Shown here piece after piece: positions 1 to 14,367 of a DNA stretch of 37,227 bases (positions are counted from its first letter, which is position 1; each line of letters begins with the position of its first letter). The DNA is taken from positions 1 to 37,227 of the forward strand of contig SCKK01000036.1 in the NCBI GenBank assembly GCA_004124475.1, given 5' to 3'. The translations under genes and the position numbers were made by a program. This DNA is from Fidelibacterota bacterium. Lineage in GTDB: Bacteria; Fidelibacterota; Marinisomatia; Marinisomatales; SCKK01. The notes below the pieces were generated by a model that was given only the letters and a program-made list of their open reading frames with translations, did not search any database and was not told the DNA's origin.

Positions 1-46
1 AAATGTCCTTTAAAGTCTTTTGGTGCCTTTTACCCAGTTTCACCAT
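1..46 (-). CDS. Partial ORF at window edge, possibly HicA-family toxin N-terminus
   Basis: On the minus strand an ATG at 46 opens a frame running off the left edge, giving MVKLGKRHQKTLKDI. It lies in the sixth cassette, about 80 bp after the cassette boundary at 126/127, where a cassette gene would be expected to begin. The KRHQKTL string resembles the start of many HicA-type toxins (KHxKTLxxIF), and toxin-antitoxin genes are common integron cargo. Only 15 residues are visible and there is no good Shine-Dalgarno sequence, so the identification is a guess. Confidence 0.3.
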   Translation of the reverse strand, partial: MVKLGKRHQKTLKDI

Positions 47-120
47 AGTATCAAGTTACAGTATCATATATTATACTGTAAAGAATTAATTTTAACTCAA
101 CTTTACTAAAACTGAAAACC

Positions 121-279
121 ATATAACAGGGTAGCTGAGGTGCGTGAAAATTATCACCACCCTGCCCGCCGTAGGCACGAAGGCGGGTCAACTTTTCCTT
201 TCCAATTTTATATCTGTAGAAATCCAAAACTTGAAATTCACGCCAAAGCTTTTCACGACAGCTCAAGCGAGGGTTATGT
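121..279 (-). other. attC site 5 (159 bp) of the integron array
   Basis: The site ends the large T9SS-cargo cassette. Read on the minus strand, the R'' box is ACATAAC (279-273) and the R' box is GTTATAT (127-121). Inner arms pair: GTGAAAA at 145-151 faces TTTTCAC at 250-256, and GTAGCTGAG faces CAGCTCAAGC. A second hairpin, CCCGCC...GGCGGG (about 165-187), is nested in one arm. Length and sequence closely match the attC at 3188-3346. Confidence 0.88.
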
Positions 280-292
280 GGCGACCGTCTTC

Positions 293-3103
293 CTATCTCA
301 TAAGTAGCATCTTTTTCGTTTGCATAAAATTACCAGCCTTTAACCGATACAGATAAAGTCCACTCGAAACCTGAATACCTGTATCATTTCTGCCATTCCA
401 TTGAACATAATGAAAACCAGCGTTTTGATATATTGTGACTAACGTACGAATTTTTTGACCAAGTGTGTTATAGATGACAAACTCAACACTGGATGCAAGT
501 GGCAGTTGATAATGAATCCGTGTTATTGAATTGAATGGGTTAGGGTAGTTCTGGTTTAAGGAATATAACTGTGGTACGTTTGACACAATAAGTGAATCTT
601 CTTCAATACTTGTTGTAATATAACTCCCTCTAAAGACACCCCCGCCTCGCACCGCGGCGTAAATTAGTCCTCCTGTGGCATCGAAAGCTAAATCTCCCAC
701 ATCCAAAGCAGTAAGACCTTGGTTGACTATGCTCCAATTTTCGCCACCGTCATTGCTTAGAAAGACCCCGGCCTGTTCCGTTCCGACACAAATTATGTTT
801 GAATTAGATGGATGAAAAGCAATGGAAGTCACTTCTAAACCAACAGGTCCATTATTTATTTTTGACCATAATTCTCCGCCATCGGTGGTTTTAAATAAAC
901 CAATATGAGTCCCGGCATAAACTGTGCTGGTGTTAAAAGGATCAATTGCAAGGGTATGTATGTTGAGGGTTGTAAGTCCCTGGTTTTTCTCTATCCAGGA
1001 ATTTCCACCGTCGGTTGACTTAAAGACACCAATGCCATAGCCCTGATTGTGAAAGATGTCCCACTTGTACGTTCCTAAATAGATTATGTTGGAATTTGAT
1101 GGGTCTATAGCGATGGTATGGACGCTAGAGCTATCAGAAGGGTAGCCGTCATTTATTTCAAACCACGTTGCGCCTGCATCGGTGCTTTTGTATATAGTAC
1201 CAAAGGGGGGAATTTGATGAGAGTTCCATGGCGGCCCGCCAACAGTTCCGGCGTAAACCACATTTGGATTGTTCGGATCAATAGCTAAGCCGTGAAAATG
1301 CACGTCTTGAAAAACCGGCTCATTGAGAATTGTCCAACTGTTTCCCCCATCCGAGCTTTTGAAAAGCCCATCATGATCGGCCAGGTATATAACCCTGGAG
1401 TTAAAGGGATCCATCTTTATGTTCATGACATAATGAAAGTGTTCAGGCAACCACTTCCAATCATCCCCAGCATTGGTGGACTTGAAAAGCCCCCTCATGC
1501 ACCAGGTGCCAGCATAGATAGTGTCCGGATTGGCCGGATCAAAAGTTATTTTCCAGATGTCAAGTTCAACGATGCCGTCGTTTATGGCCGTCCAACTGTT
1601 TCCTCCATCACTGCTTTTGGCCATGCCCTGCTCGTTTCCTGCATAGACACTATTCGGGTCAGTAGGATGGACCGCAATGGCTGGTTCAGGGCCTAAATCA
1701 AAACCAGAGTAATTAGTTAGAAACCAACTATAGCCCCCATCATTGCTTTTGAAAATCTCATCGTTTGTCCCTGCATAGAGTATGTTAGAATCGGATGAAG
1801 CGACTGCAAGCACGATGCGCTTATCAGTAAAGGTAGTGGAAATTTGCGTCCATGTATTACCCCCATCAATACTTTTATGGACGGCGTCATTGGCAGCAAG
1901 GTAGAGGGAGTTGGGATTGGTTGGGTTCATGACCAGCGAACCGTCCTGTAGAGGCAGATTGCTTACCTGTGTCCAGCTAACGCCGCCACTAGTACTCTTA
2001 AAAACGCCTGCTCCTGCTACACCTGCGTATATTATATTCGCGTTCGAAGGATTTATAAGCAACATACGCACGTCGTAGTTGAGACCGATATTACCCACAT
2101 TGCTCCAATTATCGCCCCCATCCACGGTCTTGTAGATGTCGCCTCTATCATCCCCGACGTAAATCAATTCTGGGTTCGATGGGAATATACCTATTGCTTG
2201 AACGCCCGCCGACTCCCCGCTGCCGATGCCCTGGCTCTGGAAGGTGGCTCCTCCATCGGTAGAAATGTTGACCACACCATTGCTGGTGTAAATGATGTCT
2301 GGATTGATTGGATGAATAGCGACAGGGGCGAAAATGTGAGACCCTAGTCTTGCGCCTTTAACCTCCCAACTCAACCCTCCGTTTATGGTGCTGTAAAGAT
2401 TGCTTTTGCGGGTGGCAATATAGATGGTTTGCGGATCCGATGGCGAGATGGAGATAGACCAAAATCCTCCCCCTGGTGGATAACCGGTCTGCATCCAAGT
2501 GATCTCTGAACTGCTGGGGATTGCGAGGCTGACAGTGACATCATCAAAATGGGTATGGCCACGGTTTTCGAAGGAAGAAATACCTCCGAAAAGAATAGGG
2601 TTGTCGGTGTCAGTGTAGTCAATGACAAGCGATCCCTCGACATAGATCCTGATCCTATTTTCGTTTCCATCGATTTTTACCTGATACCATTCATTCATAT
2701 TAAGAGGTACACTTGCCCCTGTGAGATTCTGATAATTTCCATTTATTTCTTTTGACAAACCCAAATAATTGGGTGACACATTAATCGAGTAGAATCCATA
2801 ACCACCTTGTTCAAAATAGGACCTATAAAAGATGCTTGCATCCTGTTCGATGAGTTTAATTTTGGTTTCAAAGATATAATTCCATCCTCCTTCTGTTTCG
2901 ATAGATATACTTCCCAAATTACTAGGGCTTACCCAACTATGTAAGACGTTGTTTCCATTGTCATTCTCGATATTCCAGCTTGGATCTCCACTCCATCCAT
3001 CTAATACGCCATCCTCAAAGTCATCCTGAAAAATAATGGTTTGAGCAAGAGTTAGTGAAGAAAAAAATAGCCAACAAATGATGAAAGGAAAAAGATTTTT
3101 CAT
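293..3103 (-). CDS. Secreted Asp-box (BNR/sortilin-like) propeller protein with T9SS sorting domain, integron cassette 5
   Basis: This is a protein of about 936 aa, taking the start at 3103. An AGAGGT Shine-Dalgarno lies 7 bases upstream, and the first residues, MKNLFPFIICWLFFSSLTLAQ, form a good signal peptide; the longer frame from 3151 lacks this. After the signal comes a concanavalin/LamG-like region (about 30-195). Then follow about 13 Asp-box motifs of the form S-x-D-G-G-x-x-W, typical of sialidase/sortilin-type beta-propellers. The last 90 residues hold LNQNYPNPFNS and end in LKAGNFMQTKKMLLMR, a type IX secretion C-terminal sorting domain. It is therefore probably exported across the outer membrane and either surface-attached or released. 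The ligand or substrate is unknown: Asp-box propellers include glycosidases, but no sialidase arginine triad could be assigned. It fills a 3067-bp cassette bounded by two near-identical attC sites, which is very large for a cassette. Confidence 0.88.
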   Translation of the reverse strand: MKNLFPFIICWLFFSSLTLAQTIIFQDDFEDGVLDGWSGDPSWNIENDNGNNVLHSWVSPSNLGSISIETEGGWNYIFETKIKLIEQDASIFYRSYFEQGGYGFYSINVSPNYLGLSKEINGNYQNLTGASVPLNMNEWYQVKIDGNENRIRIYVEGSLVIDYTDTDNPILFGGISSFENRGHTHFDDVTVSLAIPSSSEITWMQTGYPPGGGFWSISISPSDPQTIYIATRKSNLYSTINGGLSWEVKGARLGSHIFAPVAIHPINPDIIYTSNGVVNISTDGGATFQSQGIGSGESAGVQAIGIFPSNPELIYVGDDRGDIYKTVDGGDNWSNVGNIGLNYDVRMLLINPSNANIIYAGVAGAGVFKSTSGGVSWTQVSNLPLQDGSLVMNPTNPNSLYLAANDAVHKSIDGGNTWTQISTTFTDKRIVLAVASSDSNILYAGTNDEIFKSNDGGYSWFLTNYSGFDLGPEPAIAVHPTDPNSVYAGNEQGMAKSSDGGNSWTAINDGIVELDIWKITFDPANPDTIYAGTWCMRGLFKSTNAGDDWKWLPEHFHYVMNIKMDPFNSRVIYLADHDGLFKSSDGGNSWTILNEPVFQDVHFHGLAIDPNNPNVVYAGTVGGPPWNSHQIPPFGTIYKSTDAGATWFEINDGYPSDSSSVHTIAIDPSNSNIIYLGTYKWDIFHNQGYGIGVFKSTDGGNSWIEKNQGLTTLNIHTLAIDPFNTSTVYAGTHIGLFKTTDGGELWSKINNGPVGLEVTSIAFHPSNSNIICVGTEQAGVFLSNDGGENWSIVNQGLTALDVGDLAFDATGGLIYAAVRGGGVFRGSYITTSIEEDSLIVSNVPQLYSLNQNYPNPFNSITRIHYQLPLASSVEFVIYNTLGQKIRTLVTIYQNAGFHYVQWNGRNDTGIQVSSGLYLYRLKAGNFMQTKKMLLMR

Positions 3104-3187
3104 TGTGAATACCTCTTTTTTATTTTTAGGAGCTCTCAGAGAAAATGTCAATTTTCATTTGTATGCAATTCAGAAGATTGAACAGCC

Positions 3188-3346
3188 ACATAACGAGATA
3201 GCTGAGCTGCATGAAAATCATGACCACCCTGCCCGCCATAGGCACGTAGGCGGGTCAACTTCTCTTTTCCAAATCTACACTTGCAGAACCCAAAAACATG
3301 AAAATCACCGCAAAGCTTTTCACGTCACCTCCAGCGCGGGTTAGCT
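3188..3346 (-). other. attC site 4 (159 bp) of the integron array
   Basis: The site ends the TlpA cassette. On the minus strand R'' is AGCTAAC (3346-3340) and R' is GTTATGT (3194-3188). The outer arms contain AGCTGAG...TGAAAA on one side and TTTTCACG...CACCTCCAGC on the other. A CCCGCC...GGCGGG hairpin lies inside. It has the same length as attC 5 and most of the same sequence. Confidence 0.88.
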
Positions 3347-3363
3347 GGCTCGTAATGAAAATC

Positions 3364-3969
3364 TTATACATTCAATAGCTTGCGAATAAAACTTTCAACA
3401 GAATCTTCATCCCATTTGGCTCCACCAACGTGCTGGTATTCTATCATTCCTTCTTTCGATATAATAAAGGTCGCAGGGATACCCCTTGTCATCAACACTT
3501 TTGGTTTCCATCCTTTCATAATATATATAGGAAGATCATAACCTTTTTCCTTGATGAATTCTTCTACTTTTTCAGGGTTTTCATTAGATATGCAAACTAC
3601 TTCAAGACCTTCATCTTTCAATAATTCATAAAGTCTCTGGATGGATGACATTTCAGCTATGCAAGGGCGACACCAAGTTGCCCAAAAATTGAGAAATACT
3701 ACCTTTCCCTCATATGTAGAAAAATCGATTTCTGCGCCTTCTATTGATTGAATTTTCCAATTAAAGTCTAGTTTTTGTGTTGATGGAAGTGGGGGAGCGG
3801 GTAATGGAATCTCTTTTTTAGGCTGGTTACTTTTTTCTATCGCCATCGTAGATTCTACCGATTGTTTGAAGAGGTGGACTATAACAAATGTGCTGGCAAT
3901 GAGTAACATAATAGTCAAAATAATGCCAGAACTAAGTCCAATAAAGAATTGCTTGTTGAATACTTTCAT
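3364..3969 (-). CDS. Membrane-anchored TlpA/ResA-like thiol-disulfide oxidoreductase, integron cassette 4
   Basis: The protein has 201 aa. Residues 8-32 form a hydrophobic anchor, followed by a proline-rich linker (about 48-64) and a thioredoxin-fold domain. The redox motif is W99-C-R-P-C103 in the context FLNFWATWCRPC, typical of the TlpA/AhpC-TSA redoxin group, and a GIPATF cis-proline loop sits near residue 165. It is expected to act in the periplasm, reducing or rearranging disulfides of exported proteins or haem-binding proteins; the partner is unknown. The start is supported by GAGGG 7 bases upstream. It is the only gene of its cassette, with attC 4 directly downstream. WCRPC differs from the thioredoxin WCGPC, so the redox potential may differ too. 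Confidence 0.9.
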   Translation of the reverse strand: MKVFNKQFFIGLSSGIILTIMLLIASTFVIVHLFKQSVESTMAIEKSNQPKKEIPLPAPPLPSTQKLDFNWKIQSIEGAEIDFSTYEGKVVFLNFWATWCRPCIAEMSSIQRLYELLKDEGLEVVCISNENPEKVEEFIKEKGYDLPIYIMKGWKPKVLMTRGIPATFIISKEGMIEYQHVGGAKWDEDSVESFIRKLLNV

Positions 3970-4033
3970 ATCATTGCCCTCTCAAGTATTGATGAATCAA
4001 AATAATAATCAAGATCATAATATGTAGAGAGAC

Positions 4034-4095
4034 AGCTAACGGATAAGCTGAGATGCCCCGAACACTTTCGGGGTCACCTCCAGCGAGGGTTAGAA
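4034..4095 (-). other. attC site 3 (62 bp) of the integron array
   Basis: This is the shortest attC here and ends the toxin-antitoxin cassette. R'' is TTCTAAC (4095-4089) and R' is GTTAGCT (4040-4034). The stem pairs AGCTGAGATG with CACCTCCAGC imperfectly, and the loop end is CCCCGAA...TTTCGGGG. The R''/L'' half is nearly the same as in attC 4, so the two are related. Confidence 0.85.
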
Positions 4096-4098
4096 TGC

Positions 4099-4392
4099 CT
4101 ACTTGCTTGATACGTTATTGACTGTCTCTAATTCTTGATCAATACGCTCTTTCAAAAATATTTTCATTAAAGATTGATAGGGAACATCCCTTTTATTAGC
4201 GATAGTTCGTAATTCCTCTAACATATATTCAGGTATTCGTAATGAAATAGTTTTGGTAGTCGGTTTTAGTTTTGGAAATATCGCTGATTGACCTTTAGAC
4301 CATTCAATATATTCAGTTGAATCGTGGGTTGACCAAAATTCTCTTTCTTCCTCTTCGGTTTTAAACGTTGGAACGTTTTTCAATTTGTTCAT
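4099..4392 (-). CDS. brnA: BrnA/CopG-type antitoxin of a type II toxin-antitoxin pair, integron cassette 3
   Basis: The protein has 97 aa. The first part contains EEEEREFWSTHDSTEY, the hallmark of the CopG_antitoxin/BrnA family. The second half (about 45-85) is a ribbon-helix-helix region, TKTISLRIPEYMLEELRTIA followed by DVPYQSLMK, which should form a DNA-binding dimer. By family precedent it neutralises the BrnT RNase and represses the operon. The reading frame starts inside the 3' end of the toxin gene (32-bp overlap), and AAAGGAAAG lies upstream of the ATG, so the two are translationally coupled. The toxin-first order is the one usual for brnTA. The gene ends four bases from attC 3. Confidence 0.9.
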   Translation of the reverse strand: MNKLKNVPTFKTEEEEREFWSTHDSTEYIEWSKGQSAIFPKLKPTTKTISLRIPEYMLEELRTIANKRDVPYQSLMKIFLKERIDQELETVNNVSSK

Positions 4393-4678
4393 GATACGCT
4401 TTCCTTTCTTTGCGATTCATATCTCTTGCCGAAATAACACGAATTCTATTATTTCTGATTGTGAATGATATAAATAGAAACCGATTTGAATCTGTTCTTC
4501 CAAGAACATAATACCGCTTTTCTACATTTGAGTGTTTTGGGTCTTCGGAAACCAATATTGGTTGATTGAAAAACACTTCTTCACACTTATTTTTTGAGAC
4601 ACGATGTCTAATCCAGTTTTTGTCTCTGTTTCCTTTGTCCCATTCGAAGCCTTCACAATCACTAATTCTAATCGCCAT
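4361..4678 (-). CDS. brnT: BrnT-family ribonuclease toxin, integron cassette 3
   Basis: The protein has 105 aa, close to the usual BrnT (DUF497) length. Recognisable family blocks are FEWDKGNRDKNWIRHRVS near the N-terminus, a YYVLGRTDSNRFLFISFT strand pair, and IRVISARDMNRKER near the C-terminus. BrnT toxins have a RelE-like fold and cleave RNA, stopping growth when the antitoxin is lost. Here the toxin gene lies 74 bp inside the cassette boundary and overlaps the antitoxin gene by 32 bp. Toxin-antitoxin cassettes are known to stabilise large integron arrays by penalising loss, and this pair could do the same. The Shine-Dalgarno is weak. Confidence 0.9.
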   Translation of the reverse strand: MAIRISDCEGFEWDKGNRDKNWIRHRVSKNKCEEVFFNQPILVSEDPKHSNVEKRYYVLGRTDSNRFLFISFTIRNNRIRVISARDMNRKERKAYHEQIEKRSNV

Positions 4679-4751
4679 AGTCTACCGTATATTACAGAAA
4701 TATACACAAATTTCAAAAAGCTATATAACCAGTTCTAGAAATCTTTAGGCA

Positions 4752-4885
4752 TTCTAACGGAAAAACTCACCGCGCGTGAGACTTTGATTCTCAAAACTTT
4801 TGTTGATCAAATTAACTTTCATTTTTCTCCTAAACTCTAAAATTACGCTTCCAGTTCCTCACGTCCGGTGGAGTGAGTGTTAGGA
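4752..4885 (-). other. attC site 2 (134 bp) of the integron array
   Basis: The site ends the Kunitz-domain cassette. On the minus strand R'' is TCCTAAC (4885-4879) and R' is GTTAGAA (4758-4752). Inner arms pair ACTCAC (from 4765) with GTGAGT (4873-4878). The centre is AT-rich and less well paired. The sequence is not visibly related to the other attC sites. Confidence 0.8.
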
Positions 4886-4897
4886 TGCAGAATTATT

Positions 4898-5569
4898 CTA
4901 CTCATTACAAGCTGTATCGCATTCTTCATATGTTGCAAATGGAACGTAGCCACCACATCCACTCCATTCAAATTCTTTACATTCATGATCATTGAGGTCA
5001 TAATAATATTTAACTATTGAACTATCACATTTGCCATATTCAGGTTCTTGGAAGCAATTTTCAGAGTATTTGAGATAATTAATATATGAAGAATAAGGTG
5101 GATTAAACTTTATAGGTAAATCATGATCATATATTTTTACTAAATGGATTGGATAGATTTGAGCATAACAAGGTTCTCCTAGATAAAAATCAAAAACAAT
5201 ATGGAGTGTATCATTAAAAATAAATACTGATTTAATAGATTCTGAATAATCATCACAACCAGATGTTTCATTCCAAGTGACCCCTACTAGAATTGAATCT
5301 GTAAATTCTAATTGTTGACACGAAACTGTCGAAGGTGCCCGATATTTTCCACAAAAATCTAACCACTCATCATTTGAACTATAATAGAAGTATCCTTGTC
5401 TACCAACACGGAGTGCTTGATATACTGAATTTTGAACTTCGTTAAAATAAACGAAAGTCGTGTCTTGAATTTCATTATTTATTGAATCGGAGTTATCTTT
5501 GCAACAAAAAGAAATAAAACCAAACAAACTTAATATGATCGTTAATAATATAGATTTAAGATTGTTCAT
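4898..5569 (-). CDS. Secreted protein with PrcB-like and C-terminal Kunitz/BPTI-type domain, integron cassette 2
   Basis: The protein has 223 aa from the ATG at 5569. A longer frame from 5680 only translates the attC site and is rejected. The N-terminus (1-22) is a signal peptide ending FISFCCKD, possibly a poor lipobox. Residues about 66-156 resemble the PrcB-type domain (a strand pattern with a conserved Cys pair and closing LPIKF). Residues 172-221 fit a Kunitz domain: Cys at 172, 181, 197, 205, 217 and 221, spacings 8-15-7-11-3 against 8-15-7-12-3 in BPTI, with VKYYYD and EFEWSGCGG in the right places. Kunitz domains bind and block serine proteases and are rare in bacteria. The P1-equivalent residue is Asp182, not Lys or Arg, so a trypsin-like target is unlikely. 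The AGGA six bases before the ATG is part of the recombination core. The function as an inhibitor is inferred. Confidence 0.8.
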   Translation of the reverse strand: MNNLKSILLTIILSLFGFISFCCKDNSDSINNEIQDTTFVYFNEVQNSVYQALRVGRQGYFYYSSNDEWLDFCGKYRAPSTVSCQQLEFTDSILVGVTWNETSGCDDYSESIKSVFIFNDTLHIVFDFYLGEPCYAQIYPIHLVKIYDHDLPIKFNPPYSSYINYLKYSENCFQEPEYGKCDSSIVKYYYDLNDHECKEFEWSGCGGYVPFATYEECDTACNE

Positions 5570-5575
5570 ATTGAA

Positions 5576-5663
5576 TCCTAACGTCGCAAATAACCGGATG
5601 CCAAGAGATGCAGAGCGAAGCGGCGCAGCTTTTGGCAGTCCGAGTTGATTTGCCTTGTTGGGC
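5576..5663 (-). other. attC site 1 (88 bp) of the integron array
   Basis: This is the most textbook-like site. R'' is GCCCAAC (5663-5657) and R' is GTTAGGA (5582-5576). Inner boxes pair GCAAAT (5586-5591) with ATTTGC (5648-5653). The next arm pairs CGGATGCCAA with TTGGCAGTCCG, with one extrahelical region. It ends the Abi_alpha-like cassette and sets the left boundary of cassette 1. Confidence 0.92.
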
Positions 5664-5676
5664 GTAGGGATAAAAC

Positions 5677-6651
5677 TCACGCGTGAATCCTGTTCAATTC
5701 CTCAATGATCATGTCCACTATCTGGATTCTGAGATCGGTTCCGAGCGGTCGTTCACTATGCTTTGTGATTTGGTCCCCTTTCCAGATATACTTACGAAAA
5801 CCACTCCAAACAGCAGCTCGAACATCATTATCTGTCATATACCCATAAACTTCTTTCATAGCATCAAACAGAGTGTCCAGTGGTTTGCCATTGGGATCTC
5901 GAGCAACTTCTTCGATTTTATCCATACAAATAGCCCTGATTTTTTTCTTGTGCTGCTCGGTAAAAGGAATCCTGCATTTCTTGATCAGAGCCTGCCCCAA
6001 ATATGTTAATGAGGATTCTTCATAGCTTCTTTCTATCCCTACATTTTGTGTGTCAAAAGTATCATTTTCCTGACCAAGTTTTACATGAATCAAGTTTAGC
6101 CTCATAAGACTATCAAAAAGAACATGTAATTGATCATCAGCTATACTCAGGGCTAACTTCAAAGTGTGTGCTGACTGGTAGCTTGGCAACTGCCTCGAAT
6201 AGAGTCGAGCAGGGTAATCCCGCTCTTCATACATCACCTCCAAACACATTGCTTGAATGGGTGTTAGCTGACGAAGTAATTCAACATAAGTAACATAGTC
6301 GGTGGTACTCTCTCCTTGATTGGCCGCATTCGCTAGCAAAGCCGCCCATCTTGTTTGCATATCTTCATTTTCTTCCCAAGAACAGTTGTCAAGAAGGTTA
6401 GCTATGAATTTGAGAGGTACTTCTTGTGGTTTGCATCCAAAAAATCCATGGAATTTTTTTGCCTTCTTCAGAATTTTCAGCTGCGTCTTAAATCGGAAGT
6501 ACCTTACATGATCAGCGAGCAAGCCCCCCAATTCCTTTGCTGGCTGTCTTGTAATATCAGCTAAAAATCCAAAAACATTAGCTGCTGTCTCTTGACCAAA
6601 GGCTTTTGCTGCCTCCTTCTGAATTTCTTGGAATGGCACAATGTCGTTCAT
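5677..6651 (-). CDS. Abi_alpha (DUF4393)-like protein, first integron cassette, possible phage-defence gene
   Basis: The protein has 324 aa and no signal peptide, so it is probably cytoplasmic. The first 110 residues carry the pattern of the Abi_alpha/DUF4393 family: KELGGLLADHVRYFRFK (39-55), a K-rich helix LKILKKAKKF, then VPLKFIANLLDNCSWEEN (78-95) and MQTRWAALLANAAN. A helical middle region follows. Residues from about 230 to the end (IPFTEQHKKKIRAICMDKI, then RAAVWSGFRKYIWKGDQ) were not recognised. Some members of this family are linked to abortive infection, but the mechanism is not settled, so a defence role is inference. As the attI-proximal cassette it should be the most strongly expressed if a cassette promoter lies upstream. 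The ATG follows the attI core by 21 bases and the Shine-Dalgarno is weak (AGAAAAG). Confidence 0.75.
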   Translation of the reverse strand: MNDIVPFQEIQKEAAKAFGQETAANVFGFLADITRQPAKELGGLLADHVRYFRFKTQLKILKKAKKFHGFFGCKPQEVPLKFIANLLDNCSWEENEDMQTRWAALLANAANQGESTTDYVTYVELLRQLTPIQAMCLEVMYEERDYPARLYSRQLPSYQSAHTLKLALSIADDQLHVLFDSLMRLNLIHVKLGQENDTFDTQNVGIERSYEESSLTYLGQALIKKCRIPFTEQHKKKIRAICMDKIEEVARDPNGKPLDTLFDAMKEVYGYMTDNDVRAAVWSGFRKYIWKGDQITKHSERPLGTDLRIQIVDMIIEELNRIHA

Positions 6652-6672
6652 TTGATATCTTTTCTTTCTTAC

Positions 6673-6740
6673 GCCTAACTAATATTTATATAGAATTTTT
6701 AGTGGACTCATTATATTGATATTCTCCCTATTTCTGAATG
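6673..6740 (-). other. attI: primary integron recombination site (core 6673-6679)
   Basis: On the minus strand the core GTTAGGC (6679-6673) matches the G^TTRRRY consensus. It lies between intI and the first cassette gene, where attI belongs. Unlike the attC sites, the flanking sequence to about 6740 has no long palindrome, as expected for attI. The outer limit is arbitrary. The core differs by one transition from the complement of the R'' box of cassette 1 (GCCCAAC). Confidence 0.75.
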
Positions 6741-6763
6741 TGATATAATCAGTTACTAGTTAT

Positions 6764-6793
6764 AATATAATATCATTAAGGTGGTTAAAGCAA
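6764..6793 (-). promoter_or_regulatory. Candidate cassette promoter (Pc) reading into the array
   Basis: Reading leftward on the minus strand, TTGCTT (6793-6788) is followed after 18 bases by TATATT (6769-6764), a plausible sigma70-type pair. It sits between intI and attI and points into cassette 1. The region is AT-rich and other pairs can be drawn, so this is a suggestion from position and sequence only. Confidence 0.3.
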
Positions 6794-6833
6794 TTTGCTT
6801 TTCTCGTTTGCATATAGTATTATTCTAAATACC

Positions 6834-7814
6834 ATGACTGATAAATATTCTAAATATCATTCCAAGCCAAAACTGCTTGACCAAGTATCGCGACTGATGC
6901 AGAGACGCAATTATAGTCCGCGAACCATAAAAACCTATACCAGCTGGATCAAACGCTTTATTATTCATAATAACAAAATCCTCCCCTTAAAGTTGGGTGA
7001 AAAACAGGTCAGTGAGTTTCTTACCTTTCTTGCCGTGGAACGCAAAGTCTCTCCGTCAACTCAAAACCAGGCCCTCCAATCGATCCTGTTTCTTTATGCC
7101 CAGGTATTGAAGAAACCGGTCGGCTGGATTGATGGCTTTAAACGTCCCAGGCGTGCTATTCACCTACCCACTGTATTTTCTAAAAATGAAGTAAAACAAA
7201 TCCTGGATAATGTTAGTGGGATACATTGGTTGATCCTCAACTTGATATATGGTGCCGGATTGCGTCTGTCAGAATGCCTTCGACTCCGAATAAAAGATAT
7301 TGACTTTGAATACAAGCAAATTACGATTCATGATGGCAAGGGGCACAAAGATAGGATTACTGTACTCCCTGAACGGTTGATTCCACACCTGAAAAGGCAG
7401 ATTGAAAATGTAAGAATAGTGCATGATAAGGATCTTGGGCGGGGTTGTGGTGCAACAGTATTGCCCTATGCCCTTGCGCAGAAATATAGAAATATTGCTA
7501 GGGAATTTAGCTGGCAGTACATATTTATAGCCAAGAGTGTCATCAAGGACCAAGAAAATGATATGCTACGACGTTATCATATTCATGGCACTTCCGTACA
7601 AAAAGTGTTCAAACGCACTCTTCGGAAATCCGGAATTACCAAACACGGGTCTACTTACACCCTGCGCCACAGCTTCGCAACCCATCTCCTGGAAGATGGT
7701 TACGATATTCGGACAATACAAGAATTACTAGGTCATAAATCAGTTAAAACAACCATGTTGTACACGCATGTTATGAATAAAGGTGGAATGGGCGTGCGTA
7801 GTCCCCTCGATTAG
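6834..7814 (+). CDS. intI: IntI-family integron integrase (tyrosine recombinase)
   Basis: The protein has 326 aa from ATG 6834, the usual IntI length; a TTG-started frame from 6795 adds nothing family-like. It has an N-terminal SAM-like core-binding domain (about 10-100), then the catalytic domain with R144 in YGAGLRLSE, a Lys in GKGHKDR (167-173), R278-H279 in TLRHSFATHLL, H301 in LLGHKSV and nucleophile Y310 in TTMLYTHV. The extra IntI-specific segment is present (about 202-255: GRGCGATVLPYALAQKY, then FSWQYIFIAKS), which separates IntI from XerC/D. The C-terminus GGMGVRSPLD is also IntI-typical. It catalyses attI x attC and attC x attC recombination with single-stranded attC. One oddity: the box II HxxR histidine is replaced by Tyr275 (STYTLRH). 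The gene is divergent from its cassettes. Confidence 0.96.
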   Translation: MTDKYSKYHSKPKLLDQVSRLMQRRNYSPRTIKTYTSWIKRFIIHNNKILPLKLGEKQVSEFLTFLAVERKVSPSTQNQALQSILFLYAQVLKKPVGWIDGFKRPRRAIHLPTVFSKNEVKQILDNVSGIHWLILNLIYGAGLRLSECLRLRIKDIDFEYKQITIHDGKGHKDRITVLPERLIPHLKRQIENVRIVHDKDLGRGCGATVLPYALAQKYRNIAREFSWQYIFIAKSVIKDQENDMLRRYHIHGTSVQKVFKRTLRKSGITKHGSTYTLRHSFATHLLEDGYDIRTIQELLGHKSVKTTMLYTHVMNKGGMGVRSPLD

Positions 7815-7962
7815 GAACCTGGTAACTGCTTACTGTTTACTGCTGACTGGTTTTCTATAGAGTATCGAAGAAGTTCATTCCAAGGACAAACAGGAATCTT
7901 CCAATATAATAGTGACTTACGCATTATAAAAATATGTCATTTAAAGATGAACATCCGTTATA

Positions 7963-8208
7963 GTGAAAATCACACCTAACAAAGTATTTCTGGGAAATGC
8001 AATCCTTCAGACAGAAGGGATCGAAATTAACCATACTGATTGGCCAGAACTATTATATGAACGCCTAAGCCAACTAAATTTCACGCTGGTTCAGAAAGAT
8101 GTTCAGTCTTTTTTGAAACAACCAGACGACGCTCAACTGATTACCCAGGAGAATTTCAATATGCTTCTCAACCTGATTAATTCATGGCACATGAATTATT
8201 CAGGTTAA
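7963..8208 (+). CDS. Short ORF resembling the C-terminus of an AbiEii-type nucleotidyltransferase
   Basis: The ORF has 81 aa with a GTG start and no clear Shine-Dalgarno. Residues about 29-70 (LLYERLSQLNFTLVQKDVQS, then FL, then QLITQENFNMLL) resemble the tail of nucleotidyltransferases of the AbiEii/AbiGii toxin family, where a DVxPFL motif is followed by an LxxxNxxxLL helix. The catalytic GSxxxxD part is absent, so if the match is right this is a truncated remnant or a stand-alone tail, not a working toxin. It lies just beyond intI on the side away from the cassettes, in a stretch (7815-7962) that otherwise holds only imperfect TTACTG-type repeats. It may equally be an unrelated small protein or non-coding. 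Confidence 0.4.
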   Translation: MKITPNKVFLGNAILQTEGIEINHTDWPELLYERLSQLNFTLVQKDVQSFLKQPDDAQLITQENFNMLLNLINSWHMNYSG

Positions 8209-8253
8209 CAAGTATAATCAATAGCAAAATGCTTTAGCCAATGTGAGTTTAGA

Positions 8254-10251
8254 TTACTTCAAAAACCGGTCAAACCATTCTACAATAAAATTCAATCTTG
8301 CTTCCCTTCGATCTGGGCGACCATGACGTGACAAGCCATGAGGCTCCTCGGGAAATCGGACATATTCCACTTCCCGTTTCAGATACTTAAGAGCCATAAA
8401 CATCTGATCGTCCTGCTCCACATTACACCGCCAGTCGTGCTCGCTGTGAATGATGAGAAGAGGCGTCTTACACTGTTTGATGTATGTAATGGGTGACCAT
8501 TTAGCATACAACTCCGGATTATCCCACGGTGTGGATTTAAATTCCCAATCCACATCGAAACCCACGTCCGACGTTCCGAACATACTGGCAAGATTTGAGA
8601 CACTCCGCTGAGTAACCGCAGCTGCAAAACGATGGGTATGAGTTACCACCCAGTTGGTCATATACCCACCATAGCTTCCGCCGGTGACGCCCATCCGTTT
8701 CTCATCGACAAATCCCAATGATATTGCATAGTCCACGGCTGCCATTAAGTCCTTCATGGCAGGATCAGCCCATTTTGATGTGATGGCATCTGCAAATTTC
8801 TCCCCATATCCCTGACTCCCCCGGGGATTAGTGTACAACACCACATACCCATTGGCAGCTAAAATCTGCATTTCATGAAAGAAAAGCCGACCATACTGAC
8901 ATCGAGGGCCCCCATGAATTTGCAGGATAAATGGATAATTTTTTTGAGGGCTAAAGTGTGGTGGTTTCAAAAGCCAACCATGGATGTTTACCCTCCCACT
9001 TTTGAACCACACTTCCTTCGGAATATTAAAACCACGACTATTCAGGTAAGCTCGATTGAGGTAGGTCAACTGCTTAATTTTATCGCTTTTAATCGTGAGG
9101 GAAAAAATCTCATCCATATGTGACAGTTGCCCCCCGTGGAATGCCACCGTATTTCTCTCAGTATCGAAGGAGAATGTCACCACTACTTTGTCATTCACTA
9201 CCGTTTCTATCTCATCTGTTTGGGTGTTCACTCGATAAAGGGGTGAGCCTCCTTCCGATGTGGCGTTAAAATAAATCCACCTTCCTGACGGATCCCAAAC
9301 CGGGGAGGTGACGACAAAACTTGGTGTCAGGTCCCCTAACGTTACAGGATACGTTGTCCTGTCTAACTTGTCGGTGTGACTTTGGTAATCGTCACCATTC
9401 AATTTAACGGTTCTGACGGTATAATTGACCACGCCCCACCCTTCATAGGGTCTGGTATGACCAAAAAATGCCACTTTCTCTCCGTCTGGTGAAAAGGATA
9501 AACCTTCTTTAGGCCCCGCCAGCGCTGGAATATGACGAGGATTTCCCCCTTTGGTTGAGACCATATAAAGTTCATCCTCCTCAAGTCTGTATTGCCAATC
9601 CTTCCAGCGATTGGAAATAAATGCAATCTTTTTTCCATTGGGAGACCAATCGAAAAATGTGTCGTTATATTCGCCCTTCACAACTTGATGTGCCGCACCT
9701 GTACGAGCATTCGCTACCCAGACATGAGTATTTTCACTATCAAAAAACCCCTCTCCATCTAATCTATACCAGATGTTCTTGATATGGCGGTAGGCTGGTA
9801 CTTCCGGTTTACCTTCCTTATCGAACGATACTTCTTTCCCTACCGGGTGAAACAAAAATCCGATGGATTTACTATCAGAAGACCATTTTATTCCACTCAC
9901 CTCTCCTCTCGGTAGTTTCGTTAATGGATAAGCCTCCCCACCCTCCATGGGAAGGAGCCAGATCTGATCCGAAGGATCTTTTGAACCAGCGCCTTCCCGC
10001 TTTGAAATAAAGGCAAGTGTTTTCCCATGGGGGGACCAGCGTGGGCAACGGTCATTTTTCTTTCCATGAGTTAATTTTCTCACTCTTCCTCCCCTTGTGG
10101 GAATAAGATGGAGATTGGTGTAATACTTTTTATCCTTCTTGTGCATGGTTTCCACTACAAACGCAATCTGTTTTCCTTCAGGTGAAATCTGTGGATCGCT
10201 GACCAGTTTAAATCGATATATATCCGATATCCGGATTTTTTGCTTACTCAT
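8254..10251 (-). CDS. S9 family (prolyl oligopeptidase/acylaminoacyl-peptidase-like) serine peptidase
   Basis: The protein has 665 aa, the usual size for DPP/ACPH-type S9 peptidases. The N-terminal two thirds form a WD40-like beta-propeller with repeated blocks such as ISPEGKQIAFVV, WSPHGKTLAFIS and FSPDGEKVAFFG. The C-terminal alpha/beta-hydrolase domain (about 400-665) carries the catalytic triad: Ser526 in GVTGGSYGGYM, Asp606 in HSEHDWRC and His638 in EEPHGLSRHG. It cleaves short peptides or N-acylated residues, probably in the cytoplasm because no signal peptide is seen. The ATG is preceded by GGAAAAAGG. A hairpin lies in the leader at 10281-10315. The PAP2 gene ends 71 bases upstream on the same strand. 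Confidence 0.94.
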   Translation of the reverse strand: MSKQKIRISDIYRFKLVSDPQISPEGKQIAFVVETMHKKDKKYYTNLHLIPTRGGRVRKLTHGKKNDRCPRWSPHGKTLAFISKREGAGSKDPSDQIWLLPMEGGEAYPLTKLPRGEVSGIKWSSDSKSIGFLFHPVGKEVSFDKEGKPEVPAYRHIKNIWYRLDGEGFFDSENTHVWVANARTGAAHQVVKGEYNDTFFDWSPNGKKIAFISNRWKDWQYRLEEDELYMVSTKGGNPRHIPALAGPKEGLSFSPDGEKVAFFGHTRPYEGWGVVNYTVRTVKLNGDDYQSHTDKLDRTTYPVTLGDLTPSFVVTSPVWDPSGRWIYFNATSEGGSPLYRVNTQTDEIETVVNDKVVVTFSFDTERNTVAFHGGQLSHMDEIFSLTIKSDKIKQLTYLNRAYLNSRGFNIPKEVWFKSGRVNIHGWLLKPPHFSPQKNYPFILQIHGGPRCQYGRLFFHEMQILAANGYVVLYTNPRGSQGYGEKFADAITSKWADPAMKDLMAAVDYAISLGFVDEKRMGVTGGSYGGYMTNWVVTHTHRFAAAVTQRSVSNLASMFGTSDVGFDVDWEFKSTPWDNPELYAKWSPITYIKQCKTPLLIIHSEHDWRCNVEQDDQMFMALKYLKREVEYVRFPEEPHGLSRHGRPDRREARLNFIVEWFDRFLK

Positions 10252-10280
10252 CCTTTTTCCTCTCTATTTTCTCCGTAGAA

Positions 10281-10315
10281 GCTCCTTTGACCCGAAGGGT
10301 CTCCCTTGGAGGAGC
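10281..10315 (-). other. Hairpin in the leader of the S9 peptidase gene
   Basis: GCTCCT (10281-10286) pairs with AGGAGC (10310-10315), and inside it GACCC (10289-10293) pairs with GGGTC (10297-10301) around a GAA loop. No T-run follows in either direction, so a classical intrinsic terminator is unlikely. It lies between the PAP2 stop and the peptidase ATG and may act as an mRNA processing or attenuation element. Its function is unknown. Confidence 0.4.
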
Positions 10316-10322
10316 AATGTCA

Positions 10323-11174
10323 CTATATAGATAATAACAACATCAGATGGATGCCATCTCCACCTATTTTCGTATGAATAGTCATTCTACTATTAATGAC
10401 TTCTTTTTGATAGGCTTTACCAAACCCCCGTCCTATGATTGTTCCTAACGCCGCTCCTGCAATGACATCTGTCAACCAATGCTTATTGTCATGAATGCGC
10501 TGAAGACCCACAAACCCTGCCAACAAATAAACAGGAACACCCAACTTATGTCCATAAAGTTCATCCGCTACCGATGCCAACACAAAACTCCCGGACGTAT
10601 GCCCCGTGGGAAAGGAACGCGTACCCCGACCATTTGGTCGCTCTCTACCGACAGAACGTTTCAGAAAATCTGTGATTAAAGCCGTAACCCCCATAGCTGT
10701 GACATAATATTTCATATCCGAGACAACACTTTCCTTTCCACTCCTCAAATATGAAGTTATCCCTACAACCACCAAACCTACCGGATAGGCACGCCCGCCT
10801 CCATATTCATCAAGGAATCGGGATAAAGATTCAGACATCAACCCATTCTCACTAGCATACTCCTGAACATCATCATCGTAGGTATGCAACAGTAAAGTTG
10901 ACAACGCTGCACCACCAAGAATCCATTGATTGGTTCTGTCTGTAAGGATATTTTTAAATCCATGAGCCAGATAATTAGGATAACTCATGATAAAATTTTG
11001 ATCGGTATTGGGTGATAGCGCAAATGTTGCAGTGAAGGAACAGAATATTAATAGAAAGCAAAAAAACGTGGTGCAGTTTTTTACCACTAAGGACGTAGAG
11101 AAGGTGCAAAGGGCACAATGTAAATAACTATCTTGATAACCGTCTTGTATCCTTTGTGTTTTCTGCGGTTTCAT
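10323..11174 (-). CDS. PAP2-superfamily membrane phosphatase
   Basis: The frame gives 283 aa. All three PAP2 signature blocks are present: KRSVGRERPN, FPTGHTSGSF and the HDNKHWLTDVIAGAALG block. These form the vanadium-haloperoxidase-like active site of lipid phosphatases acting on undecaprenyl-pyrophosphate, phosphatidic acid or PGP. The early residues (about 30-53, VVKNCTTFFCFLLIFCSFTATFA) look like a signal peptide. The first 29 residues look like translated intergenic sequence, so the true start may be the GTG near codon 30. Several hydrophobic segments follow. The PAP2 active site would lie on the periplasmic face. The gene ends 71 bases before the S9 peptidase gene. The substrate cannot be told from sequence. 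Confidence 0.88.
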   Translation of the reverse strand: MKPQKTQRIQDGYQDSYLHCALCTFSTSLVVKNCTTFFCFLLIFCSFTATFALSPNTDQNFIMSYPNYLAHGFKNILTDRTNQWILGGAALSTLLLHTYDDDVQEYASENGLMSESLSRFLDEYGGGRAYPVGLVVVGITSYLRSGKESVVSDMKYYVTAMGVTALITDFLKRSVGRERPNGRGTRSFPTGHTSGSFVLASVADELYGHKLGVPVYLLAGFVGLQRIHDNKHWLTDVIAGAALGTIIGRGFGKAYQKEVINSRMTIHTKIGGDGIHLMLLLSI

Positions 11175-11178
11175 AATA

Positions 11179-13566
11179 TCAAGTCACAAGCTGGTTTAGA
11201 ATTTTCATGCTCACCTTTTTACTTTTTTCCCCCACTTCTTTTGCAGGTCCCACACATGATGGACAACCAGAGTCACACCGGCAATTCCCAATTAATTCCC
11301 TCGTCTGTTTAAGAATATCTTCATGAGTATCGTAAAGCTGTTGACTGAATCCAACTCCCCCTTGATAGTTGTCATAAATGAAGATGGTAGGTTGAAATTT
11401 GGTCAGATCTGTTGATTTGACCTGGTGATCTGAGAATCCTCCATTCGCTGTGGAATAAAGCCCCCGGGATCCAAAAACATTTCTGATGTACCATTCTGCA
11501 GATTTATCCCCTATACTCCGGTGAATATCCAATACGGTACACATTAGATTCAGAGCACACACATGGTGAAGTGCATTCGCCATTCCAAGAATACCATCAA
11601 TAATGTCCGCTCGTGAAAAGCGAAGTTTTTCCAGAAAGGATTCAGGTAGCGTAAACCAATAAGCAGTAGTTTGAATTTCCATATCCGGCAGGTTAATATC
11701 CCCATACCCCACATTTTCCATGGTGTAAAACTTGATTTTTTTAAATCCCACTGCCCGAGTAGTAACTTGCACTTCACCCAATGTAACATCAATTCCGCCT
11801 GCTCTCCGATTTTCAAACTCGTCTAATACTTTTACATTTGTGTATTCTACGGCATCGGTGTAGTAGTTCGAATCGGTATCACGCACTGTCGCTTTCCTTC
11901 CGTCCCAGTCCAACTCATCTACAATGTACTCATTTCCATCGGTCATATAGATGGCATCGGGGTATATCGTTGTGATAGAGTTGGTATAATCCACTTCGGC
12001 TATGATCCGGGACTCTTCCCCCCGTTTTACGACCACGAAGTTCCCCTTTTCTATTCTCCGCAAAGGAACATTTACAGCAGGATAAACGTCTTCCGTCCAA
12101 TGCCACAAATCACCGTCTCGAAGAATGACATTCCCCTCCTGAAGAAATTCAAGAATATCATTCAAATCATCAGCAGATACCTTTCCAAATGTCTCCCCTT
12201 TCCGGAATGGCAATTCAAAAGCAGCACACTTCACATGATCCACCAGGACAGGAAGATTGTCAGGATTTATCCGGGCATGTTCCGGGGAAGCGCCGAAAAA
12301 GTAGTCCGGTTGATTCATTAGAAATTGGTCTAAAGGATTTGATCTACCGATGAGAATAGCCACAGAGGATTTGTCTCGCCTCCCAGCTCGCCCCGCCTGT
12401 TGCCAGGTAGAAGCAATGGTGCCGGGATATCCTGCCAGCACAGCTGCCTCGAGGCTACCAATGTCAATGCCCAATTCAAGAGCGTTGGTTGTTACTACAC
12501 CTCTAATATCACCGGACCGAAGTCCTTTTTCAATTTCACGCCTCCGATTAGGAAGATATCCACCACGGTACCCTGCCACAACCTCGCCAGAAACGAGGGC
12601 AACTCGACTTGATTCGAATTCATCCTTCAAATATTTAGTGAGAATTTCAACATTAAGGCGACTGAGAGCAAAAACGATGGTTGATATATTTTTATTTAGT
12701 AGAACAGAAGCCAACTTGCGTGCCTCCTTAATGTAACTGCTCCGGATGCCTAATTGTCGATTCACTACAGGTGGGTTGTAAAAAATAAAGTACTTTTTAC
12801 TTGTGGGGGCTCCGGAATTATCTACCAGCTTCATAGGTAGTTCTAATAAAGCTTCCGCATGTTCCTTTGGATTAGCAATGGTAGCAGAACAGCAAATAAA
12901 TTGGGGTGAAGATCCGTGGAACTCACATACTCTTTTTAATCTGCGAATGACATTTGCCACATGACTACCAAATACTCCTCGGTAAGTGTGTAACTCATCA
13001 ATGACAACATATTTCAAATTCTGAAATAGAGAAATCCACTTTGTGTGATGAGGCAGAATACCTTGATGGAGCATATCCAGATTCGTTACCACAACATTTC
13101 CCTGTTTCCGGATAGCCTGGCGGGCATTCTGAGGCGTATCCCCATCGAAAGTGTACACTTTAATCGACTCCCCCATAACGTCTATCACGCCATTCAATTC
13201 CGCAACTTGATCCTGTGACAATGCTTTAGTGGGGAAAAGATAGAGGGCTCGACAGGTAGGGTCATCTAAAATAGCTTGAAGTACGGGGAGATTATAACAT
13301 AGTGTTTTCCCTGACGCAGTGGGCGTCACCACAACGAGGTTATCACCAGAACTCAGGATGTCCCAACACCTCTTTTGGTGAGAATATAATCTTTCAATCC
13401 CCCGGGATTTTAATGATCTGGCAATCCGAATATCCAAATCAGCAGGAAAATCCACATATTCGCCTTCATTGGCTTGAATGAAGTGAACGTACTCAATATT
13501 TGGACCTACGTCGGGATGAGCCTTGAGGAAATCGATTATTAAATTGGTGTCAGTTTTTTCGACCAT
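11179..13566 (-). CDS. mrfA: MrfA/YprA-like DEAD/DEAH-box DNA repair helicase with DUF1998 domain
   Basis: The protein has 795 aa. Helicase motifs are in order: Q-like region near YSHQKRCWDIL, Walker A TPTASGKT (81-88), TKALSQDQ (Ia), DELH (190-193), SATI (227-230), and motif VI QQAGRAGR. The C-terminal DUF1998/MZB region ends with C762-x-C764-x3-C768-x2-C771, the zinc-binding four-cysteine pattern known in Bacillus subtilis MrfA. MrfA works with the exonuclease MrfB in excision of mitomycin adducts and crosslinks; other relatives (Hrq1, Lhr-like) also unwind 3'-5' DNA. No mrfB-like exonuclease is visible next to it. The gene ends only 4 bases upstream of the first codon of the PAP2 frame. 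The symbol is by family similarity. Confidence 0.9.
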   Translation of the reverse strand: MVEKTDTNLIIDFLKAHPDVGPNIEYVHFIQANEGEYVDFPADLDIRIARSLKSRGIERLYSHQKRCWDILSSGDNLVVVTPTASGKTLCYNLPVLQAILDDPTCRALYLFPTKALSQDQVAELNGVIDVMGESIKVYTFDGDTPQNARQAIRKQGNVVVTNLDMLHQGILPHHTKWISLFQNLKYVVIDELHTYRGVFGSHVANVIRRLKRVCEFHGSSPQFICCSATIANPKEHAEALLELPMKLVDNSGAPTSKKYFIFYNPPVVNRQLGIRSSYIKEARKLASVLLNKNISTIVFALSRLNVEILTKYLKDEFESSRVALVSGEVVAGYRGGYLPNRRREIEKGLRSGDIRGVVTTNALELGIDIGSLEAAVLAGYPGTIASTWQQAGRAGRRDKSSVAILIGRSNPLDQFLMNQPDYFFGASPEHARINPDNLPVLVDHVKCAAFELPFRKGETFGKVSADDLNDILEFLQEGNVILRDGDLWHWTEDVYPAVNVPLRRIEKGNFVVVKRGEESRIIAEVDYTNSITTIYPDAIYMTDGNEYIVDELDWDGRKATVRDTDSNYYTDAVEYTNVKVLDEFENRRAGGIDVTLGEVQVTTRAVGFKKIKFYTMENVGYGDINLPDMEIQTTAYWFTLPESFLEKLRFSRADIIDGILGMANALHHVCALNLMCTVLDIHRSIGDKSAEWYIRNVFGSRGLYSTANGGFSDHQVKSTDLTKFQPTIFIYDNYQGGVGFSQQLYDTHEDILKQTRELIGNCRCDSGCPSCVGPAKEVGEKSKKVSMKILNQLVT

Positions 13567-13764
13567 AAAGGAATGATAATTTAAGGAACTACCACAATCT
13601 TTAAACAGGGTTTCATTACGGAGAATCCACTACACCCGAAAGAATCACTTATCTGCCATTTCCGTTCCCATACCCAAGGCGAAAATGACAGGGGGGATTA
13701 CACCACTTTCATGTATGGAAAAGATTAATGGTCTGAAAGCGGCTAATCTCAGCCTGATCTGCAT

Positions 13765-14367
13765 TCAATCACCAGGAGACAGCAATCTGGTCAGATCTTT
13801 TTTCATCTGGGCATCATTCTCATAAAGAATCGTATTTAACCCAAAAACCTGGGCTCCTTTGATGTTGTCAATATTATCATCAATAAAAAGGGTTGATTCA
13901 GCCTTAGCATCTGATATTTTTAATGCAGTTTTAAAAAACGTGAGATATGGCTTTCGTACTCCAATTTCATAAGAATAAATACAACCGGTAAATTTATCGA
14001 AAACCCCCTGAAGTCCATTTTGAATGTGATATGGATTTGTATTAGAGGTTAACCAAACTGAGTATTTATCTATCAATGAGAGAGCCAAATCCATGGTGTC
14101 CGTGGGCTCCCCCAAAAGTTGTAACCAGGCATGAAAAAAATCCGCTTCCGTAAGATGGTTAGAATGAGGAAAACATGCTTTTACCTGCTTGTAAAATTCG
14201 CTATCCGTCAGTTCACCCCGTTCATAGGCATGGTGAATCTCACCTACTAAGAGTGATTCAATCACTGATTTATCCAACCCGGTTTTCTCACATAAGTAGC
14301 GCAAAGTACGGTACGGATGAATATTCAAGAGTACTCCACCAATATCAAAAAAAATGGTCTTAATCAT
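13765..14367 (-). CDS. HAD-superfamily hydrolase, YihX-like subfamily IA
   Basis: The protein has 200 aa. Motif I is FFDIGGVLLN with nucleophile Asp8; the second Asp of the usual DxD is Gly, as in the FDxGGV-type HAD-IA branch (YihX and relatives). Motif II is LTSNTNPYH, motif III the lysine of GVRKPY, and motif IV FIDDNIDNIKGA. The helical cap between motifs I and II (about 20-90) fits subfamily I. Members dephosphorylate small phosphorylated metabolites such as sugar phosphates, and the specific substrate is not readable here. The start overlaps the stop of the methyltransferase gene by 4 bases (ATGA type), so the two are co-translated. Confidence 0.9.
   Translation of the reverse strand: MIKTIFFDIGGVLLNIHPYRTLRYLCEKTGLDKSVIESLLVGEIHHAYERGELTDSEFYKQVKACFPHSNHLTEADFFHAWLQLLGEPTDTMDLALSLIDKYSVWLTSNTNPYHIQNGLQGVFDKFTGCIYSYEIGVRKPYLTFFKTALKISDAKAESTLFIDDNIDNIKGAQVFGLNTILYENDAQMKKDLTRLLSPGD

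What the first reader, a model, noticed from the sequence alone, without database searches (positions are those of the whole stretch)
4898..5569. Kunitz/BPTI-type domain on an integron cassette, joined to a PrcB-like domain
Six cysteines (172, 181, 197, 205, 217, 221) fit the Kunitz spacing to within one residue, with YYYD and EFEWSGCGG in place. Kunitz domains are mainly animal proteins and rare in bacteria. The P1 position is Asp, so the target would not be trypsin. The domain in front resembles PrcB, a protein linked to an exported protease in Treponema. Together this suggests a secreted protease inhibitor or modulator that moves as a cassette.
Basis: partly seen in the sequence, partly recalled or inferred. 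Interest (0 to 1): 0.78.

Follow-up and report, generated by a model that had tools for sequence, protein, structure and literature searches.

The report
Integron-borne Kunitz inhibitor-like lipoprotein
A marine bacterium carries, on a swappable integron gene cassette, a probably exported protein whose tail is a true Kunitz (aprotinin-type) protease-inhibitor domain; it belongs to a little-studied but widespread bacterial branch of a family best known from animals, here joined to a front domain in a combination found nowhere else in our searches.

Summary
The 223-aa ORF at 4898-5569(-) has a Pfam Kunitz domain at residues 172-221 (38.1 bits, cut-off 21), and an alignment-based AlphaFold model (pLDDT 90.6) matches dendrotoxin, textilinin and BPTI (TM about 0.75-0.83). 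It is an integron cassette: integron integrase (TIGR02249, 405.8 bits), five attC-like sites, exactly complementary cassette ends. In a sister species the backbone is 95-97% identical but similarity stops at the attI junction and the array differs. The front domain is a divergent PrcB_C relative: invisible to Pfam, supported through a bridging Marinimicrobia protein and shuffle controls.

32 of 245 Marinimicrobia genomes have one, and one degenerate pattern found 144 loci in GTDB genomes, mostly Bacteroidota. The one-residue shortening is the hallmark of this bacterial branch, and acidic P1 is common in the phylum (21 of 33 domains). P1 is hypervariable while P1' is nearly fixed as Ala/Gly, as expected of canonical inhibitors. 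The window's domain is an outlier (P1' Ser, position 36 Ser). Best reading: a cell-surface or periplasmic anti-protease with unknown target. Function is inferred, not shown.

The parts
4898..5569 (-). ORF of 223 aa: hydrophobic N-terminus ending Cys22-Cys23, PrcB_C-like domain (about residues 37-158), Kunitz domain (172-221)
4907..5056 (-). Kunitz/BPTI domain, residues 172-221; P1 Asp182, P1' Ser183, Ser203 at BPTI position 36
   Evidence: PF00014 38.1 bits, AF2 pLDDT 90.6, Foldseek to PDB Kunitz domains
5096..5461 (-). divergent PrcB_C-like domain, about residues 37-158, with four cysteines (73, 84, 105, 134), the last two shared with L032
   Evidence: profile and shuffle tests, hhalign 82.5%
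4758..5581 (-). integron cassette 2 (Kunitz cassette), 824 bp between the two crossover points
   Evidence: R' GTTAGGA at 5576-5582 and R'' TCCTAAC at 4879-4885 are exact reverse complements
5576..5663 (-). attC site of cassette 1, 88 bp, strong hairpin (-32.7 kcal/mol)
4752..4885 (-). attC site of the Kunitz cassette, 134 bp
4034..4095 (-). attC site of cassette 3, 62 bp
3188..3346 (-). attC site of cassette 4 (R'' AGCTAAC 3340-3346, R' GTTATGT 3188-3194)
   Evidence: by eye
121..279 (-). attC site of cassette 5 (R'' ACATAAC 273-279, R' GTTATAT 121-127)
   Evidence: by eye
6795..7814 (+). integron integrase intI, divergent from the cassettes (longest frame; a later ATG is possible)
   Evidence: TIGR02249 405.8 bits, cut-off 265
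6673..6679 (-). GTTAGGC, attI/first-cassette junction; similarity to the sister species stops at 6676
5677..6651 (-). cassette 1 gene, Abi_alpha (PF14337)
4099..4678 (-). cassette 3 genes, BrnT toxin and CopG-type antitoxin
3364..3969 (-). cassette 4 gene, TlpA/ResA-like thioredoxin-fold protein
293..3151 (-). cassette 5 gene, secreted beta-propeller protein with type IX sorting tail

Best explanation
The gene is an integron cassette encoding an exported, probably membrane-anchored, disulfide-rich protein. Its PrcB-like domain acts as a platform or partner-binding module; its C-terminal Kunitz domain presents a canonical reactive-site loop that plugs the active site of a chymotrypsin-fold (S1) serine protease accepting Asp at P1. 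The target is most likely an extracellular protease of another organism (competitor, predator or grazer), because the S1 hits in its own genome score like the hits found in nearly every genome of the phylum (taken to be HtrA/Deg-like). Shown: fold, cassette structure, family membership, loop conservation. Inferred: export route, inhibition, target, benefit of carrying it as a cassette.
For: Kunitz match and fold. In 101 bacterial domains P1 is the third most variable of 46 columns while Gly12 and Cys14/Cys38 are invariant and P1' is Ala/Gly in all but the window's domain, the pattern expected of canonical inhibitors with varying targets. The window's two odd residues are compatible with binding: Ser at P1' was among residues selected in BPTI against trypsin (PMC4092071) and Ser36 occurs in the working chymotrypsin inhibitor NACI (PMC6270371). 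Most relatives are small lipoprotein-like exported proteins. Own-genome S1 hits are only E about 5e-20, a level seen throughout the phylum. Cassette evidence.
Against: No assay of any member of this bacterial branch was found. The window's domain is the only one with P1' Ser and Ser36 and has a long branch, so it may have lost inhibition. Asp is a poor P1 for common S1 proteases (own knowledge). The lipobox is atypical. Variable P1 could also reflect relaxed constraint at an exposed position.
Confidence: 0.5

Rival explanations
1. The Kunitz domain is a non-inhibitory, disulfide-locked binding module (as in dendrotoxins or collagen VI C5), used for adhesion or partner recognition at the cell surface.
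For: The window's domain departs from the branch at P1' and position 36; many relatives carry Kunitz domains as C-terminal add-ons behind dockerin-like repeats or other domains; fold neighbours include dendrotoxin, calcicludine and collagen VI C5.
Against: Canonical loop frame is conserved across the branch and P1 varies much more than P1'; Ser at either odd position is tolerated in known binders.
Confidence: 0.27
2. The protein works like Treponema PrcB: a lipoprotein subunit that stabilises or matures a surface protease of its own cell, with the Kunitz domain as a regulatory or docking part.
For: Remote PrcB_C similarity; PrcB is needed for the PrtP subtilisin (PMC8167434); a domain X occurs with PrcB-like domains (L132, L133) and with Kunitz domains (L079, L083), which links the two loosely.
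Against: No PrcA or subtilisin gene beside it; a cassette is unlinked from any fixed partner; Kunitz domains act on S1, not typically on subtilisin-family proteases (own knowledge); similarity is below Pfam's cut-off.
Confidence: 0.13
3. A decaying or accidental fusion captured as a cassette, without a maintained function.
For: Only one copy of the architecture was found; long branch; absent from the same-genus genome.
Against: Intact ORF with an AGGA start signal, all six Kunitz cysteines kept, four further cysteines in the front domain of which two are shared with L032, confident fold.
Confidence: 0.08

Closest known systems
Kunitz/BPTI family (Pfam PF00014; MEROPS I2)
   Same: Six cysteines, Gly12, YYYD and GxxC motifs, fold (TM about 0.75-0.83 to solved members), above Pfam cut-off
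   Different: One residue fewer between C4 and C5 with a VPF-like motif, Trp at position 35, P1 Asp, P1' Ser, Ser36
Stand-alone bacterial Kunitz lipoproteins of Marinimicrobia and Bacteroidota (annotation-level family, about 80 aa)
   Same: Same C4-C5 spacing and VPF motif, similar signal/lipobox region, 42-62% identity over the domain
   Different: They lack the PrcB-like domain; none in the fetched flanks lies beside an integron integrase
PrcB / PrcB_C (Pfam PF14343), Treponema denticola dentilisin subunit
   Same: Remote full-length profile similarity of the front domain; exported lipoprotein-like protein
   Different: Below Pfam detection, extra cysteines, no protease operon, fused Kunitz domain
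Acinetobacter baumannii protein F6W77 Kunitz peptides (PMC11511053)
   Same: Kunitz domains reported from a bacterium; recombinant peptides inhibit coagulation proteases
   Different: Five domains, key P1 Arg, animal-like according to the authors, no PrcB-like part, no integron
Integron gene cassettes
   Same: intI, attI junction, attC sites, one gene per cassette in fixed orientation, array turnover
   Different: Cargo is a Kunitz-domain protein; no paper in the held library contains both words

Membership tests
Kunitz/BPTI (PF00014) | profile match over the curated cut-off | tested here: met
   38.1 bits against 21; 41.8 bits in the genome search
Kunitz/BPTI (PF00014) | six cysteines at BPTI spacing | tested here: met
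   8, 15, 7, 11, 3 against 8, 15, 7, 12, 3 in BPTI; the 11 is shared by 102 of 106 bacterial domains
Kunitz/BPTI (PF00014) | Kunitz fold | tested here: met
   AF2 with 44 rows, pLDDT 90.6; Foldseek TM about 0.75-0.83 to PDB Kunitz domains
Kunitz/BPTI (PF00014) | 1-6, 2-4, 3-5 disulfide pairing | not testable with these tools
   coordinates are not returned; expected from the fold only
Kunitz/BPTI as an inhibitor | canonical loop: Gly12, Cys14-Cys38, small P1' | tested here: met
   Gly179, Cys181, Cys205 present, P1' Ser183 is small but unusual for the branch
Kunitz/BPTI as an inhibitor | inhibits a serine protease | not testable with these tools
   needs an enzyme assay
PrcB_C (PF14343) | profile match over the curated cut-off | tested here: not met
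   no hit at E<10; own genome has none
PrcB_C (PF14343) | remote homology by profile comparison | tested here: inconclusive
   10.8 bits, 23.4 with the bridging L032, best of 2000 shuffles 7.7 and 8.0; hhalign 82.5%
PrcB of the dentilisin complex | operon with prcA and prtP (subtilisin) | tested here: not met
   neighbouring cassettes are unrelated
Integron gene cassette | integron integrase gene and attI | tested here: met
   TIGR02249 405.8 bits; junction at 6673-6679
Integron gene cassette | attC with R' and R'' complementary to the cassette's own ends | tested here: met
   exact for cassettes 2-5, one mismatch (G-T) for cassette 1
Integron gene cassette | exchangeable array at a fixed attI | tested here: met
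   sister species G070 shares the backbone up to 6676 and then has other genes
Bacterial lipoprotein | signal peptide with lipobox | tested here: inconclusive
   hydrophobic N-terminus ending in FISFCC by eye; -1 residue atypical; no predictor available

The most novel reading that the evidence does not exclude
Marinimicrobia exchange protease inhibitors as integron cassettes: a hypervariable-P1 bacterial Kunitz branch is an anti-protease armoury against extracellular proteases of grazers, predators or competitors, and integrons supply interchangeable members of it.
Probability: 0.15. Interest if true: 0.78.

Novelty: new variant of a known kind. Interest (0 to 1): 0.5.

Why it matters
It points to a broad bacterial branch of Kunitz domains with the sequence signature of working inhibitors, for which the open-access library held almost no experimental work, and to at least one member carried on an integron cassette. 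If the domain inhibits, it would add protease inhibitors to the known cargo of integrons and give a first functional handle on these lipoproteins.

Tried and rejected
Single-sequence AlphaFold of the whole protein gave an unusable model (pLDDT 41.6). No full-length relative was found in IMG/VR, plasmids, 245 Marinimicrobia genomes (front domain only) or 32 Kunitz-bearing genomes (front domain). The Kunitz domain found nothing in phages, plasmids or viral contigs. No other fetched Kunitz locus carries an integron integrase in its flanks (flanks of 1.5-6 kb, so distant arrays could be missed). A presence/absence link with PF00089 proteases was uninformative because 236 of 245 genomes have a hit. 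A tree on 46 columns could not place the window's domain. The idea that Ser183 or Ser203 must abolish inhibition was dropped after reading PMC4092071 and PMC6270371. Rfam found nothing in the window. Paper searches combining Kunitz with integron found nothing.

Full report
What is there. The minus-strand ORF 4898-5569 encodes 223 residues. The N-terminus is hydrophobic and ends in Cys22-Cys23, a loose lipobox also seen in a stand-alone relative (L013, STFFCCKED), so lipoprotein export is likely but not certain. Residues 172-221 match Pfam Kunitz_BPTI at 38.1 bits (cut-off 21, E=1.8e-9), and PDB sequence searches hit SmCI, TFPI, boophilin, dendrotoxins and BPTI. An AlphaFold model of residues 165-223, built on 44 bacterial domains, has pLDDT 90.6. 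Foldseek places it with textilinin, dendrotoxin, TFPI, APPI and BPTI at query TM about 0.74-0.83 and rmsd about 1.3-2.1.

The cassette. The gene at 6795-7814 is an integron integrase (TIGR02249, 405.8 bits, cut-off 265). On the minus strand five attC-like sites follow: 5576-5663, 4752-4885, 4034-4095, 3188-3346 and 121-279 (the last two were delimited by eye). For cassettes 2 to 5 the R'' box is the exact reverse complement of that cassette's own 5' boundary; for the Kunitz cassette these are TCCTAAC and GTTAGGA. The Kunitz cassette runs 4758-5581 and carries its own AGGA start signal just before the ATG. In the same-genus genome G070 the locus is present: window 6676-11182 and 11178-13907 align at 94.9% and 97.1% identity, integrase included (93% protein identity). 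The alignment stops at 6676, inside the attI/first-cassette junction, and beyond it G070 has different genes. G070 has no Kunitz gene. This shows array turnover at a fixed site, and argues against a mis-assembly on that side.

A bacterial Kunitz branch. PF00014 is found in 32 of 245 Marinimicrobia genomes and in none of 14 control genomes. One degenerate pattern in GTDB genomes returned 144 confirmed loci, of which 80 were kept: many Bacteroidota (Hymenobacter, Runella, Flavobacteriaceae, Saprospiraceae), Marinimicrobia, Alcanivorax, Syntrophaceae and a few others, some of them MAGs where binning errors are possible. Most are lipoprotein-like proteins of about 80 residues; one Saprospiraceae protein has six domains. 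Almost all (102 of 106 distinct domains) have 11 residues between C4 and C5, where BPTI has 12, and a VPF-like motif, so the window's shorter spacing marks it as one of this branch. The pattern fixes the F.WGGC.G stretch, so conservation there is partly by choice of sample. P1 lies outside it, and the Marinimicrobia set (L002-L030, found with PF00014) also shows variable P1 with mostly acidic residues: D 11, E 10, K 7, R 3, Q 1, L 1.

Loop statistics. Over 101 domains (about 71 effective), P1 is the third most variable of 46 columns, Gly12 and Cys14/Cys38 are invariant (the cysteines by the search pattern), and P1' is Ala or Gly in all but the window's domain, which has Ser. The window's domain is also the only one with Ser at position 36. 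Both changes are known in working binders: Ser was among the preferred P1' residues in BPTI selections against trypsin (PMC4092071), and NACI, a chymotrypsin inhibitor, has Ser36 (PMC6270371). Hypervariable P1 on a fixed frame is what canonical inhibitors show (own knowledge), so I favour inhibition, with the target open. Asp at P1 would suit a protease with acidic or unusual specificity (inference).

The front domain. Pfam gives nothing. A Marinimicrobia lipoprotein (L032) is related at E=1.2e-4 (29% over 77 residues), and it matches a PrcB profile built here from Bacteroidota PF14343 proteins at 42 bits, although Pfam's own short model does not list it. The window's domain scores 10.8 bits against that profile and 23.4 when L032 is included, against a best shuffle of 7.7 and 8.0 among 2000; hhalign gives 82.5%. 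I call it a divergent PrcB_C-like domain, not a member by Pfam's rule. Domain partners form a loose chain: a domain X follows a PrcB-like domain in L132 and L133, and related X domains precede a Kunitz domain in L079 and L083 (blastp E=1.5e-6 between L079 and L132). In Treponema PrcB supports a subtilisin (PMC8167434), but nothing here ties this gene to such a protease.

Target. Own-genome PF00089 hits (best E=5.3e-20) resemble those in nearly every genome of the phylum and are taken to be HtrA/Deg-type housekeeping proteases, so an external target is more likely. Three genomes (G177, G178, G181) have strong trypsins and all three also have Kunitz domains, but they come from two families, so this is a lead only.

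Verdict and limits. Membership in the Kunitz family and in an integron array is secure; PrcB kinship is probable; function is inferred. Only one sequence of the full architecture is known here, there is no assay, and the genome is an incomplete draft in 77 contigs. The phylum name (Marinimicrobia, Fidelibacterota in GTDB) rests on named GTDB contigs that match the anonymous ones in length, for example UBA1134 with 13266 bp.

Noticed in passing
G000 contigs C57, C71, C54, C65, C13 (L143-L147) and window 6795-7814: The genome has six integron integrase hits over the TIGR02249 cut-off, only about 40-54% identical to the window's (two look interrupted or truncated); 42 of 245 genomes of the phylum have at least one.
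   Followed up: partly
window 4099-4678 and 5677-6651: Neighbouring cassettes carry a BrnT/CopG-type toxin-antitoxin pair and an Abi_alpha (abortive infection) gene, typical defence or maintenance cargo.
   Followed up: no
window 127-3193: A cassette of about 3 kb carries a 952-aa beta-propeller protein with a type IX sorting tail, unusually long for a cassette gene.
   Followed up: no
L023, L024, L025, L027, L030: Kunitz domains sit at the very C-terminus behind dockerin-like GDVNxDxxxNxLD repeats in large Marinimicrobia proteins, often with two extra cysteines.
   Followed up: no
L068: A Saprospiraceae protein made of six tandem Kunitz domains with differing P1 residues.
   Followed up: no
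L052, L081, L100 and L079, L083: Flavobacterial lipoproteins with two other kinds of N-terminal domain fused to a C-terminal Kunitz domain; the L052-type front domain has no Pfam match.
   Followed up: partly
G070:C128 (L149) 1-6830: The sister species' array at the same attI begins with a GNAT-like acetyltransferase gene, and a resolvase-like fragment lies further along.
   Followed up: no
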